From: Lycorma delicatula
Lineage: Eukaryota > Arthropoda > Insecta > Hemiptera > Fulgoridae
Reading direction: 5' to 3'
Assembly: GCF_047948215.1 (NCBI RefSeq)
Contig: NC_134455.1
Coordinates: 349,647,991 to 349,711,990 of the forward strand
Length of the DNA stretch: 64,000 bases
Positions 695-63,947 of this stretch are shown here, in pieces. The notes under the pieces were generated by a model. It worked only from the letters and a program-made list of their open reading frames with translations, did no database searches and was not told where the DNA came from. A program made the position numbers and the translations under genes. Position 1 is the first letter of the stretch, and every line of letters begins with the position of its first letter.

Positions 695-1559
695 TCAGCC
701 TGAAGATTTTATCATAGAAAACATTCCATAAGGTTGGGCCAAGGACAGATCCTTCGGCACCCCTCCGAATACCTGAAATATGGCTTTCCTTTCTAGGGTT
801 TTGACCTCTATGAACCTATTTTGCAGATATTGATCTATCTGATTTACTAAGTATTTACTTATTTGCATGGCTTGAAGCGCCTCAATGATGGCTGTCCAGG
901 GGACCGTACCAAATCCGTTTTTAACATCAAGCATTATGATCATGGGGATTTTTCTAGTCCTCCATGTACCGCTTCTGCAATTTAATGCCCAGTTTTTTAC
1001 CTTCTCGACTGCGGTGACCGTGGACCGTCCCTTTCTAAATCCGTATTGTTCCGGATGTAGACATTGTTTTTCCTCTATTTCCTCTCTAAGTCTATTTTCT
1101 AACAACCTTTCAACTACTTTTCCCATATTATTTATGAGCGTAATCGGTCTATATGCTGTGTTCTCTTGAATTTGTCCTGCCTTTGGGAGGAAGACTGTTC
1201 TTGCTTCCTTCCAGCATTCAGGGAAGCTTCTATTTTGTAGGCCGTAGCTGGCTACATCGACTATTTTCCAAGGTACGATCCTAGCTATTATCTTAATGAT
1301 GGCCGCTGGGATGCCATCTGGGCCGGGGCTTTTCTTATGTTTTAATTTATTTATAGCTTCCATGACCTCTTTTTGTGTAAATCTTCCTCCCTGGCATTCT
1401 ATCACCTCTCTATTATATTGCTCCTCCGTTCTGGGGAATAACTTTCTGATCTGCAACGCAGCCGTTTCTTCATTCAGTTTCAGAGCTTGTCTCCCAAGCC
1501 ACTTGGTTACTATTTTGAAATGCTGTTCCCCCGGATCAGCATAATATCTAAAGTGCATA
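695..1559 (-). pseudogene. LINE reverse transcriptase, upstream part
   Basis: This frame reads as the fingers and palm of a non-LTR retrotransposon reverse transcriptase. Counted from the first ATG of the frame, KSPGPDGIPAAIIK lies at residues 81-94, YRPITLINN at 141-149, QYGFRKGRST at 176-185, and the palm motif A LDVKNGFGTVPW, with a catalytic Asp, at 215-226. The 'DVKN-F-(x)-W' form is typical of R1/Jockey-like LINE groups, but I cannot fix the clade. The frame breaks at GGVP (about residue 271), where one base is missing, and continues in another frame in the next entry. There is no endonuclease domain, so the copy is 5' truncated, as most LINE copies are. Immediately beyond its 5' end a short sequence (ATAATATCTAAAGTGCA) occurs twice. 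Confidence 0.88.
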
Positions 1560-1574
1560 ATAAAGATATGCATA

Positions 1575-1990
1575 ATATCTAAAGTGCAACAAGGTAACTC
1601 AGTCTGGCTGGGTCTCGAAATCGATCGCCCGGTTGACTCGGTACATGGTGTGTTAAGCCTCGAGGCTACACCAGTTCGTCGACCGCTGTAGCCTACAAGT
1701 GAAATCTTTTCTATGTAAATTGTGAAATTACATTAGTTTAGTTATTACTGACCGTCACCGCTATTATCGCCACCCCCGCGCGAATTAAATACGGTTTGCG
1801 CACCCGCTTTAGTTACAATCGTTGAATTAATTAAGCAAAAAAATATTATGACTAAATAAAAAGATAATTATTTTAAATTAAGTTGAGTGTGTAAGCCTTG
1901 CATCAGTAACAACTCACAGTTGCAGGACTTTCCCGGAAAGCAGCTTTAGCTGCGTGACGGGAAAGTCTTACAGCTATGTTGTTTGCTTTG
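1575..1990 (-). repeat. Dispersed family A, copy 1 (partial)
   Basis: Homologous to copies at 16.3, 18.5, 20.7, 39.0 and 47.3 kb. In family orientation the element begins with a hairpin of GACTTTCCCG and CGGGAAAGTC arms (here 1930-1970). A core follows that looks like a pol III internal promoter: an A-box-like TGGTGTAGCC and, about 60 bases on, a B-box-like stretch (TTTCGAGACCC in this copy). This copy covers the 5' half only. The short frame at 1903-2094 is not a gene. Confidence 0.75.
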
Positions 1991-34490: not shown

Positions 34491-35558
34491 ATGAATAGGA
34501 AAATCGATGATGCCGCCGACTGTGAAATAAGTGGAGTCATGGTTTTTTAAACCATCAAAACGTTAAGCCGGTTGAATTTCATAGACAGTTGGTTGCTGTG
34601 TACGATGATATTGTAATGAATGAAAGAAATGTCCAAAAATGGTGTGAAAGGTTTAGAAATAACAGAAGTAATGTTCATTATGAAGAACGTTCGGGAAGGC
34701 CCTCGATAATCACTGAGGATTTGTTGAAACGCGTCGATGATGAAATCAGAAAAGATCGTTGCTCAAGAATTTCCGACCTGGCTGTCTTTTTCCTGATGTT
34801 TCAAGAACTGTTATCGGTCACATTGTTCATGACCGTTTGAGCTTCAGAAAGGTCTGTGCATGTTGGGTGCCGCACGTCTTAACGGAACGTCACAAAATAA
34901 TCCGAATGAGATCTGCTTTAGAATTTTTGATGCGCTACACAGCAAAAGATGATGAGATCCTTAATTAGATTTTTACCGGCGATGAAACATGGATTTCGTA
35001 TTACACGCCAGAGAGAAAACGGCAGTCAAATGAATGGCATCATCCTTAATCACCAATCAGACCGACAAAGATCAAGCCACAGCGATTTGGACGGAAACTG
35101 ATGGCCACAGTTTTTTGGGATCGGTTTGGTATACTGCTGATTGATTTTTATGCCTTGTGGAACGACTATAAATGCAGAAGCCTACTGCAAAACTGTACGT
35201 AAGTTACGGTGCGCCATTCAAAATTGGCGACTGACCGACGTCGACGTCCTGCAGCACGATAATTCCCATCCACATGTTATGGGTCCGACACGTGTTTTAC
35301 TGAGAATATTTTGATGGGAAATTTAGGATCACTCATTATATAGTCCTGACTTGGCTCCTCCTGCTGATTATCATTTGTTTGGGAAATTGGAAAAAACTTT
35401 TGATTGATAAGCAATTCGCGGGTGACAATGAACTTAAAATTGCTGCTAATCAGTGACTAAATGGACTGGCGGCAGAAGAATGCGACAGGGATATATTGAA
35501 GCTGGTGTATCGTTACGATAAATGTCTTAATTCATTTGGCGATTATATAGAGAAGTAG
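34491..35558 (+). pseudogene. mariner transposase, degenerate
   Basis: Spans the full length of a mariner transposase but is broken by stops and shifts. The helix-turn-helix half reads MNERNVQKWCERFRNNRSNV and EERSGRPSIITEDLL. Later segments are VCACWVPHVLTERHK, FTGDETWISYYTPERKRQS (first catalytic Asp in GDETW, about 34981), LMATVFWDRFG, and the end LVYRYDKCLNSFGDYIEK with TAG at 35556-35558. The HDNA region is distorted but visible (LQHDNSH near 35253). The start at 34491 is the family-typical position. Terminal repeats were not identified with confidence. Confidence 0.88.
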
Positions 35559-44090: not shown

Positions 44091-44182
44091 CTAATTAATT
44101 ATTCATCACACAAATTTTAAAAAAGCTGGACTGCAGTGACAGACACTATAAATTAATTTTAATCCGATTCTCTCAAATGCAG

Positions 44183-44898
44183 CAGTGGCGGCTCGTAGCT
44201 AAAATTAGTGGGGGTGCTGCTCCAGAAAATATTTTTCTGGGCCTTTTCAAAGTCATGGCTAAAGTTTCTGTAAAATAAAAGAACCGAAAAAAATGAATCA
44301 AATTGAATAGCTGGAAGCAGGATAACAATATAATTCTATACTTTATCGCATTCAAGAATGTGGTACACGGTTTTTAAGCACAATATGCTTAAAAACCGTA
44401 TTCGGTTTTTAATCATAAGACAAATACATAATTAGTTTTTACTAATTACCTTTTCTTTCGCTCTTCCAGCGTGTTTTCGAACAGATTTGGCAATCAAAGA
44501 CTCCTTGTTTTCCGTCATCTTCTGATAACTACTGAAATACAACTAAACCACTTTCATATTCTTTCCACCGATTAAACAAGAAAAAGAGAACGAACAAGAA
44601 ACGTTCCATACACACGCGGAGTAAAAAAAAAACTATCTTCCAACAGCACATCAGGGTTGGCAGTGCGGAAGCGACAGTTCTCTCTCTCCCTCGCGTTCAG
44701 CTTCCTATGTGCGCATGGGGACAACAACGAATCACCACGCCGCTGGAACTGTGAAGCCCACAGTTCCATATTAAGATTTTTCTATGTTTTTCATAAATTG
44801 ATAGCTATTGATATTAAGCTTAAGGATTATATATTGTACAATTCAAGTGGAAATGGGGGTGCTGCAGTTCCACAGTGCCTATACGCGAGCCGCCACTG
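44183..44898. mobile_element. hAT-type element carrying a host gene fragment
   Basis: Inverted ends CAGTGGCGGCTCG (44183) and CGAGCCGCCACTG (ending 44898) are perfect over 13 bp. The flanking 8-mers AAATGCAG (44175-44182) and AAACGCAG (44899-44906) form an 8-bp target duplication with one mismatch, typical of hAT. The left about 190 bases match the second copy at 63575. The interior holds no transposase but contains, on the minus strand, a 5'-UTR-like GC-rich stretch (about 44519-44760), a coding exon (44450-44518) and a splice donor. The interior also has a 14-bp perfect hairpin (44367-44399). A 716-bp element with captured exon sequence is a Pack-type transposon. Confidence 0.85.
44450..44518 (-). 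pseudogene. Amph: Captured first coding exon of amphiphysin
   Basis: ATG at 44518 opens 23 codons reading MTENKESLIAKSV and ending KHAGRAKEK. A good splice donor AAG|GTAATTAG follows. From memory, insect amphiphysin (N-BAR-domain membrane-curvature protein) begins MTENK, continues AKSVQKHAGRAKEK, and then enters the BAR domain. The first coding exon of its vertebrate homologue BIN1 also ends at the equivalent QEK. Only this exon is present; the next exon is not in the window. The GC-rich leader upstream looks like a real 5' UTR. Because it lies wholly inside a transposon with intact ends and target duplication, I infer a captured copy rather than the native gene. The alternative is that the element's ends happen to bracket the true exon. 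Confidence 0.72.
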
Positions 44899-44961
44899 AA
44901 ACGCAGCAAGAAACATTTAAATAAGTGAATGGATTGGTGAGCGTATATGTATTATCTGACA

Positions 44962-58209: not shown

Positions 58210-59499
58210 TAGATATTTATAATAGAAAGCAAAAACAGATGATTATTTCTTTTATTAAAAAAAGCATATAATTGCATACATAGTAGGCCTTCGATGTTAA
58301 AAATTCTGAGAAATCTCGGATTGGATCCTAAATTGGTAAATATGATCGGTTTAACATTGACAAATACAAAATCTAAAGTGAAGTTTCGTGGCGAATTTTC
58401 CGAAACTTTTTACATAAAATCCGGAATGAGACAAGGCGACGGACTTTCGCCTTTATTATTTAATCGTGCACTAGAATTTCTGATGCGCGAATGGTTTAAA
58501 ATTAATTCAAAAAATATTCATATAGGATACAAAAGAGATAACTTAAATTTAAATTGCCTAGGATTTGCCGACGACTTAGCTTTATTAGCTAATAGTATTG
58601 CAGAAGCCAGAATACAAATAACAAGTGTAGAAGAACTTGCGAATAAAATTGGATTTAAAATTTCTTACGAAAATACTAAAATGATGGCTATAGATCCTTT
58701 AGTTATTAATTCTGTGAATATTAATGGAAACAAAGTAGAACTTGTAGACAAATTTAAATATCTTGGAGAGATCATTACTTGTGATTGTAACGAAAAACAA
58801 AATTGAACTGAAAGACTTAATAAATTATTTAAAGTGCTACAAGTAACCAAAAATACTTACAACAAAAATTCGCTCTCGATTAAGACTAAAATTAGACATT
58901 ACAAAACTGTGGTTAAACCAGTAATTACTTATGCGAGCGAGACTTTATTTAGATTAAATCAGAAAAATAGGACTGAAACTTTGCTTAAAGTTGAACGCAG
59001 GATTATTAGAACCTATATAAACAAAAAATAAACACGAAAATCAGTACAGATTATTGCCTAATAGATTTCTGTACGAAAACTTGGAATCCTTAGTTGATAC
59101 TGTGAAAAAGAAGCGAATTTCTTTTTGTGCACTCTTGTTAAGATTACCGCAGGATAGGATTACTAAGAGAATTATCGATCAAATTTGGTCTTTAAAAAAT
59201 CCGCCATTATGGATCAAAGAAATTAAAGAAGACATGCAAGAATTAAATTTGACTTACGAAGATTTACTTAATAAATCCGAAAAATTAAAATTTTTTATTA
59301 AAGATCCGAATACCAACTTTAAAGTAAGAACTTTCAATTATACAAAAAGGGTTTATTCAGAAGAGGATCGTAAAACAAGATCATTAAGAATGACTAAATA
59401 TTGGGAGAAAGTAAAAGCTAAGAAAAAGGCCAAAAGATCGGCAAAAAAAACTTGAATTATTCTGACTAAAGTGGTCCTTTGCGGCCTTAAAAGTAAAAA
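58210..59499 (+). mobile_element. LINE reverse transcriptase with target-site duplication
   Basis: A 5'-truncated LINE flanked by a 13-bp duplication AAAAGTGGTGATA (58197-58209 and 59500-59512), ending in a short A tract. The frame from 58294 has MLKILRNLGLDPKLVNMIGL, SGMRQGDGLSPLLFNRALEF, the catalytic LGFADDLALLANSIAEARIQ, and VDKFKYLGEIITC. There is a TGA at 58804-58806, after which the same frame continues (TERLNKLFKVLQVTKNTYNK) to 59031. After a one-base shift in an A run the C-terminus reads RLLPNRFLYENLESLVDTVK and ends in a lysine-rich KAKKKAKRSAKKT (stop 59453-59455). Motif A upstream is decayed (KKAYNCIH kept). The clade is uncertain; the RT has the RQGDxLSPxLFN form. Confidence 0.88.
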
Positions 59500-63574: not shown

Positions 63575-63947
63575 CAGTGGCGGCTCGTTACTAAAATTAG
63601 TTGGGGTGCTGCTCCAAAAATTTTTTTTGGGTCTTTTCAAGGCCATGGTTAAAGTTTTCTATAAAATAAAAGAATCTAAAAAAAATAAATCAAATAGAAT
63701 AGCTGGAAGCAGGATAATAATATAATTCTACACTTTATCGCATTCAAGAATATGGTACACGGTTTCATTCTTTCTAATAACGTTTTCCTTGATTTTCAGA
63801 AAGTTCAGTTTCGTTGTTGCGTTTTTGCACTTCTTGGAACCTTTTATTTTCATCTTTTAATATTGTCTTTAAAATTTCTCTTTCTTTTATAATTTCTTCA
63901 GTTCTTTTAGTTAGATCTTCTTGGACTCGTGTAAACCATTTGCCTTT

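What the first reader, a model, noticed from the sequence alone, without database searches (positions are those of the whole stretch)
44183..44898. hAT element that has captured the promoter-proximal exon of amphiphysin
Seen: perfect 13-bp inverted ends, an 8-bp target duplication with one mismatch, and inside it a 23-codon ATG exon ending at a good splice donor. The exon's start (MTENK) and end (KHAGRAKEK) match the remembered N-terminus of insect amphiphysin, and the exon boundary matches that of BIN1. A GC-rich leader precedes the ATG. Inferred: a Pack-hAT carrying the host 5' UTR, first coding exon and start of intron 1, which could spread an alternative promoter or a decoy transcript. Such transduplication is well known in plants (Pack-MULEs) but less described in insects.
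Basis: partly seen in the sequence, partly recalled or inferred. Interest (0 to 1): 0.85.

Follow-up and report, generated by a model that had tools for sequence, protein, structure and literature searches.

The report
Jumping gene spreading amphiphysin's first exon
A small, non-self-sufficient "hAT" jumping gene picked up the first coding exon of the animal's own amphiphysin gene and spread it to more than two thousand places in the genome, which makes it an unusually well-resolved case of a transposon capturing and multiplying a piece of a host gene.

Summary
44183-44898 is a non-autonomous hAT: 13/13-bp TIRs and a 7/8-bp TSD. On its minus strand it carries amphiphysin exon 1, MTENKESLIAKSVRKHAGRAKEK|GT. 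A 35-nt exon-plus-donor probe matches 2,250 places in the genome with up to 3 mismatches; the reversed control gives 0. The native gene lies on contig C9: exons 2-4 at 22.683-22.696 Mb, exon 1 319 kb upstream. Element consensus and native locus are identical at 319 of 323 bp, with sharp ends and no hAT sequence around the native copy: 94 bp leader, 69 bp exon, 160 bp intron. Three of 16 elements sampled by left end alone lack the captured segment plus a 26-nt filler. The filler consists of inverted copies of its two flanks, a template-switching mark. Correction: the GC-rich leader is not from amphiphysin; the exon-less elements have it too. Copies decay, with at most weak constraint on the exon. 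Promoter or decoy activity is untested. Pack-hATs are known in animals and fungi, but the survey read reported none in insect reference genomes and only four multicopy cases.

The parts
44175..44182 (+). left target-site duplication AAATGCAG
   Evidence: 7/8 match to the right octamer
44183..44195 (+). left terminal inverted repeat CAGTGGCGGCTCG
   Evidence: 13/13 inverted match; left-end 35-mer 1,735 times in the genome with up to 3 mismatches, reversed control 0
44183..44382 (+). left arm of the hAT
   Evidence: mapped to consensus; shared with the exon-less elements L071, L080, L082
44383..44408 (-). capture-junction filler: inverted copies of the captured end (ATTCGGTT) and of the hAT side (TGTGCTTAAAAACCGT)
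   Evidence: consensus rc 679-704, absent from the exon-less elements and from the native gene (read by eye); inverted repeats I1/I2
44418..44612 (-). captured amphiphysin segment as kept in this copy (leader, exon 1, start of intron 1; consensus rc 551-678 mostly deleted here)
   Evidence: consensus rc 356-678 is 319/323 identical to the native locus C9:22363857-22364179
44450..44518 (-). captured coding exon 1, MTENKESLIAKSVRKHAGRAKEK
   Evidence: phmmer to PDB 1URU E 7.4e-5; same phase as the native gene
44448..44449 (-). splice donor GT of captured intron 1
   Evidence: GTAATTAG, identical in the native gene; use not tested
44519..44612 (-). captured host sequence before the ATG (94 bp)
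   Evidence: 94/94 identical between consensus and native locus
44613..44770 (-). GC-rich segment of the hAT itself (consensus has an NRF1-like GCGCATGCGC; degraded in this copy), bounded by the palindrome 44744-44768
   Evidence: present in exon-less elements; absent from 3.4 kb upstream of native exon 1
44771..44898 (+). right arm of the hAT with right TIR 44886-44898
   Evidence: mapped to consensus; right-end 36-mer 2,241 times genome-wide with up to 3 mismatches, reversed control 0
44899..44906 (+). right target-site duplication AAACGCAG
63575..63765 (+). left end of a second copy of the family, cut off by LINE-like sequence (not a second capture)
   Evidence: 193-column alignment, 90% to this element and 93% to the consensus; LINE reading of what follows is by eye

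Best explanation
A resident non-autonomous hAT with a GC-rich interior suffered a break or stalled replication inside itself. Repair switched template to the host's own amphiphysin gene, copied 323 bp (94 bp leader, exon 1, 160 bp of intron 1), snapped back on both ends to leave a 26-nt filler of inverted repeats, and returned to the element. The filled element still had intact ends. hAT transposase made elsewhere then moved it in trans to more than two thousand sites. The copies have since decayed, with at most weak constraint on the exon. Shown: element, donor locus, exon-less form, junction structure, probe counts, decay. Inferred: that the exon-less form is the pre-capture state, the template-switch route, trans-mobilisation by a resident transposase, and the lack of any lasting function of most copies.
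For: TIR and TSD; 10 of 40 copies have perfect 8-bp TSDs and 19 of 40 at least 7/8, with different octamers. Amphiphysin identity. Native exons 2-4 and native exon 1 with sharp 323-bp identity, no hAT sequence beside it. Probe counts 513 with no mismatch and 2,250 with up to 3 mismatches, reversed controls 0. Exon-less form in 3 of 16 left-end-sampled elements, and the filler. At the four sites where consensus and native differ, the consensus base is in 38, 32, 38 and 29 of 40 copies and the native base in 0, 1, 1 and 4, pointing to one founding capture. Synonymous share of exon changes not raised, p 0.15. hAT dimerisation domains (PF05699): 150 scored of 1,975 candidates, all matching, many without stops inside.
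Against: The native leader and intron piece differ from the consensus at only 2 of 254 sites, while copies average 5.8% and 7.0% there; about 17-19 differences would be expected. So the native stretch is constrained or was converted, or copies mutate faster; this is unexplained. Exon substitutions are fewer than expected from the rest of the element (179 against about 224; codon position 1, 43 against 72; stops 5 against 10), so weak or past constraint on the exon is not excluded. The transposase partner was not identified. Only the fetched copies were checked for ends; the other probe places were not.
Confidence: 0.95

Rival explanations
1. 44183-44898 is the native first exon of amphiphysin with an incidental pair of TIR-like sequences.
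For: The frame is intact and has a good donor.
Against: No other amphiphysin exon in the window; exons 1-4 of the gene are on C9; the same unit recurs with TIRs and TSDs in the fetched copies and the exon probe matches over two thousand places.
Confidence: 0.01
2. The exon-bearing copies are functional: they spread a promoter plus first exon that makes chimeric transcripts, or decoy transcripts or small RNAs acting on amphiphysin.
For: 24 of 40 copies keep ATG, open frame and GT together; exon substitutions are about 20% fewer than expected; the capture lies just downstream of a GC-rich segment with an NRF1-like site, intact in 11 of 40 copies.
Against: Synonymous share of exon changes is not raised (p 0.15); mean exon mismatch 6.5% is like the rest, 5.8-8.4%; only 3 of 40 keep the native peptide; no expression data.
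Confidence: 0.08
3. The element brought the exon into the amphiphysin gene (exonisation), not the other way round.
For: The 98.8% identity is symmetrical.
Against: The exon matches Drosophila amphiphysin, the native copy has no hAT sequence at either side, and exon-less elements exist.
Confidence: 0.01
4. The capture happened in another species and the filled element arrived by horizontal transfer.
For: hAT elements are known (recalled) to move between species.
Against: The consensus matches this genome's own gene at 319 of 323 bp including intron and leader, and the exon-less form is resident.
Confidence: 0.03

Closest known systems
Pack-TIRs / Pack-hATs of animals (Tan et al. 2021, PMC8277862; abstract and sections 7, 9, 14 read)
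   Same: A hAT with host sequence between its ends, including a multicopy case (5' UTR of CAPSL in hAT-N8_XT of a frog); template switching proposed as origin of multicopy cases.
   Different: That survey found 370 Pack-TIRs in 100 genomes, none in insect reference genomes and only four multicopy, the frog case with three copies. Here the exon probe matches more than 2,000 places, and donor, exon-less and filled forms are all present. Its method required a unique best parental hit and annotated flanking TEs, which could miss such a family (my inference).
Histone H3-carrying hAT of Pseudocercospora fijiensis (Dhillon et al. 2019, PMC6710886; abstract and section 7 read)
   Same: A hAT that captured a host housekeeping gene and amplified it to hundreds of copies, all inactivated except the original.
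   Different: There a transcript or retrocopy without introns was probably captured and RIP destroyed the copies. Here genomic DNA with leader, exon and intron start was captured; many copies keep an open exon.
Ssk-FB4 of Drosophila populations (in PMC8277862, section 9 read)
   Same: Host gene captured by a TIR element and re-transposed in flies.
   Different: Three loci, one of them tandemly duplicated; nearly the whole gene; element with long TIRs, more like a MULE.
Pack-MULEs / Pack-TYPE elements of plants (PMC8903248, search listing and start of abstract only; otherwise recalled)
   Same: Non-autonomous TIR elements that carry gene fragments.
   Different: Plant elements with many different captures (recalled); here one capture, very many copies.

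Membership tests
hAT superfamily (non-autonomous) | short TIRs beginning CAG | tested here: met
   13/13 bp, CAGTGGCGGCTCG; that hAT ends begin CAG is recalled
hAT superfamily (non-autonomous) | 8-bp target-site duplication | tested here: met
   7/8 here; 8/8 in 10 of 40 copies, at least 7/8 in 19 of 40; in the other 21 degenerate, not seen, or an end is missing
hAT superfamily (non-autonomous) | mobilised by a hAT transposase with the same ends | tested here: inconclusive
   150 hAT dimerisation domains scored in the genome; none tied to these ends; their flanks were not fetched
Pack-TIR / Pack-hAT | host gene sequence between the ends of one element | tested here: met
Pack-TIR / Pack-hAT | identified parental copy outside the element, not flanked by ends of the element | tested here: met
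   C9:22363857-22364179, one match only in L086
Pack-TIR / Pack-hAT | related element without the insert | tested here: met
   3 of 16 left-end-sampled elements lack the captured part, gaps beginning and ending within about 15 bp of each other; pre-capture status is inferred
Pack-TIR / Pack-hAT | transcription or chimeric transcripts (seen in some, not defining) | not testable with these tools
   no RNA data
Retrocopy capture (as histone H3 in P. fijiensis) | exon-exon junctions, no introns | tested here: not met
   intron 1 sequence follows the exon

The most novel reading that the evidence does not exclude
The thousands of dispersed exon-1 copies act back on amphiphysin or on other genes. 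Small RNAs or antisense transcripts from them could target the native first exon, or the portable unit (GC-rich NRF1-like segment, leader, ATG, exon for the membrane-binding H0 helix, splice donor) could tag other proteins with an H0 helix. The unusual conservation of the native leader and intron start (2 of 254 sites against 6-7% in copies) and the mild shortage of exon substitutions would then be traces of constraint or conversion linked to the copies.
Probability: 0.08. Interest if true: 0.85.

Novelty: new member of a known kind. Interest (0 to 1): 0.6.

Why it matters
In the animal survey read, gene capture by cut-and-paste elements was nearly always single-copy. Here one capture can be read in every stage inside one genome: parental gene, exon-less element, filled element with a diagnostic fold-back junction, and over two thousand probe matches. 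That makes the capture mechanism, and whether multiplied host promoter-proximal exons are silenced, spliced in or turned against their parent gene, directly testable. It also warns gene annotators: such a family can seed false amphiphysin first exons genome-wide.

Tried and rejected
Native gene with chance TIRs: rejected. Retrocopy capture: rejected, intron present. The copy at 63575 as a second capture: rejected; the end of about 192 bp is cut by LINE-like sequence (by eye; the weak ARGLU match was below cut-off). GC-rich leader as amphiphysin promoter: rejected; I held it as a possible second capture until one search showed it in exon-less elements (the 40 scored places of each are full-length or nearly so and element-like; the two best were fetched and are element copies). 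Strong purifying selection on the exon: not supported, though substitutions are somewhat few. Native exon 1 near exon 2: not in the 140 kb upstream; found 319 kb upstream. One viral and one prokaryote contig scan and a plasmid search gave nothing. First pattern wrongly demanded G at donor +5 and found two places, both element copies. Autonomous partner not found. Papers: ten searches list no high-copy Pack-hAT in an insect and no amphiphysin capture; one search showed 15 of 23 and 5 of 26 papers, and the library lacks most subscription journals and all bioRxiv preprints.

Full report
Observation. The 13-bp inverted ends at 44183-44195 and 44886-44898 are exact, the flanking octamers agree at 7 of 8 positions, and among 88 perfect 13-bp inverted pairs 100-2000 bp apart in the window this is the only pair with such flanks. 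On the minus strand, 44518 to 44450 reads MTENKESLIAKSVRKHAGRAKEK followed by GTAATTAG. phmmer against all PDB chains up to E 10 returns one sequence, Drosophila amphiphysin 1URU, residues 1-22, E 7.4e-5. tblastn of the whole BAR domain finds this exon at E 4.8e-5 and nothing else below E 0.07 in the window.

The family. The window lies in a 2.2-Gb, 14-contig genome. The element's DNA gave 5,777 first-look candidates; the 40 that the tool scored all matched. I took these 40 (chosen by similarity to the window copy, so biased) and built a consensus of 905 bp between the TIRs. 10 of 40 have perfect 8-bp target duplications and 19 of 40 at least 7/8; in the other 21 they are degenerate, not seen or an end is missing. 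Whole-genome pattern counts: peptide KHAGRAKEK plus GT, no mismatch, 513; exon end plus donor, 35 nt with up to 3 mismatches, 2,250; left end 35-mer with up to 3 mismatches, 1,735; right end 36-mer likewise, 2,241; reversed-pattern controls 0 in all four. In the 40 copies the exon probe finds 33, the left probe 18, the right probe 24, so a rough corrected number of exon-bearing copies is about 2,700; this is an estimate from a biased sample, and most probe places were not looked at singly.

The donor. A BAR-domain search of the genome gave three matches, which I take as exons 2, 3 and 4, on C9 + strand at 22683307, 22688935 and 22695854; the last match has one TAG flagged inside it, possibly where it runs past the exon (not looked into). 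Exon 2 begins ILQNLGKVDRTADD after TTTTTAG. Exon 1 was not in the 140 kb upstream. A search with the Drosophila exon-1 peptide (150 scored of 2,873 candidates) listed a frame at C9:22363951-22364019, same strand, 319 kb upstream of exon 2. The fetched stretch matches the element consensus at 319 of 323 bp, over rc-consensus 356-678 only, with no hAT ends, and encodes MAESKGSLIAKSVQKHAGRAKEK. Joined to exon 2 the peptide matches 1URU over residues 1-68, E 3.3e-32. That this exon 1 is spliced to exon 2 is inferred from order, strand, phase and sequence; no transcript was seen.

The exon-less form. Of 16 elements picked by an exact left end without regard to the exon, 10 have the exon. Three (L071, L080, L082) have the left arm joined to the GC-rich segment and right arm without the captured part; L080 also lacks the last 17 bp or so of the right end and has an insertion in its left arm. 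One (L076) is a 104-bp miniature, one (L079) breaks off into other sequence just before the exon but has captured intron, and one (L081) is a relative sharing only the left arm up to about consensus 187. By BLAST the gaps of the three run from consensus 199 to 552, 201 to 561 and 187 to 548, against 202 to 550 for capture plus filler; in the alignment the junctions agree within a few bases, L071 being the most altered. Independent deletions to nearly the same ends in three copies are unlikely, so I read them as the pre-capture form; this is inference. The GC-rich stretch with its NRF1-like GCGCATGCGC is therefore the element's own and not the amphiphysin leader; it also has no counterpart in 3.4 kb upstream of native exon 1.

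Mechanism. The filled form has 26 nt more than the 323 bp: AAACCGAATACGGTTTTTAAGCACAA, which holds an inverted copy of the captured end ATTCGGTT followed by an inverted copy of the element side TGTGCTTAAAAACCGT (read by eye). The upstream junction shares TGT between element and gene (by eye). Such fold-back fillers fit template switching during repair or replication, as proposed for animal multicopy Pack-TIRs (PMC8277862, sections 7 and 9 read). At the four sites where consensus and native differ, the consensus base is in 38, 32, 38 and 29 of 40 copies and the native base in 0, 1, 1 and 4, so one capture founded the family, unless the native gene itself changed at those sites. Transposition in trans by a resident hAT transposase is inferred; 150 hAT dimerisation domains were scored but none was tied to these ends.

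Fate of the copies. Median K2P distance to consensus is 0.078, range 0.046-0.123, in the 40. Among the 16 blind elements three were left out of the distance run (L076, L079, L081); of the 13 measured, 11 give 0.068-0.107 and two (L083, L080) give 0.225 and 0.412, probably because sequence from outside the element was forced into the alignment. In the exon there are 58 synonymous and 121 nonsynonymous changes (5 to stops) against 61.6, 162.3 and 10.3 expected from the rest of the element; the synonymous share does not differ (p 0.15), but the total is about 20% low and codon position 1 is low (43 against 72.1), so weak or past constraint, or bias in how the copies were chosen, is possible. 24 of 40 keep ATG, open frame and GT together, 3 of 40 the native peptide. 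The exon encodes the start of the N-BAR domain, the membrane-inserting H0 helix region (PMC4614383, passages seen; exact residue limits recalled). Nothing here shows that any copy is transcribed.

Unexplained: the native leader and intron piece carry 2 differences in 254 noncoding sites from the consensus, while the copies average 5.8% and 7.0% there, which would give about 17. A simple clock would give the native locus many more. Constraint on the native stretch, conversion between copies and gene, or faster decay of copies could each explain it; I cannot decide.

Prior work. Tan et al. list 370 Pack-TIRs in 100 animal genomes, 208 of them hAT, none in insect reference genomes, four multicopy. 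Dhillon et al. report histone H3 multiplied to hundreds of copies by a hAT in a fungus. My ten paper searches list nothing on an insect Pack-hAT of this size or on an amphiphysin capture. The host is taken to be an arthropod, probably an insect, from 78% identity of exon 2 to Drosophila; the record is unnamed.

Noticed in passing
63575-63765 and L048: Second copy of the family's left end inside the window, cut by LINE-like sequence with a T-run and an antisense reverse-transcriptase-like frame (by eye).
   Followed up: partly
695-1729 (-) and 58243-58803 (+): Reverse-transcriptase fragments (Pfam RVT_1, E 2.2e-18 and 4.6e-16), LINE remains.
   Followed up: no
34526-34837 (+): Mariner-like transposase start (Pfam HTH_48, E 4.3e-7).
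   Followed up: no
C9:22363857-22364179 (L086): Native amphiphysin leader and intron start are almost unchanged from the element consensus (2 of 254 noncoding sites) while copies differ by 6-7%: constraint, conversion or faster decay of copies.
   Followed up: partly
C9:22364019-22683307: Amphiphysin intron 1 is about 319 kb long in this genome, if exon 1 is spliced to exon 2.
   Followed up: no
L081: A relative sharing the left arm (consensus 1-58 and 45-187) but with unrelated interior: perhaps a sister non-autonomous family.
   Followed up: no
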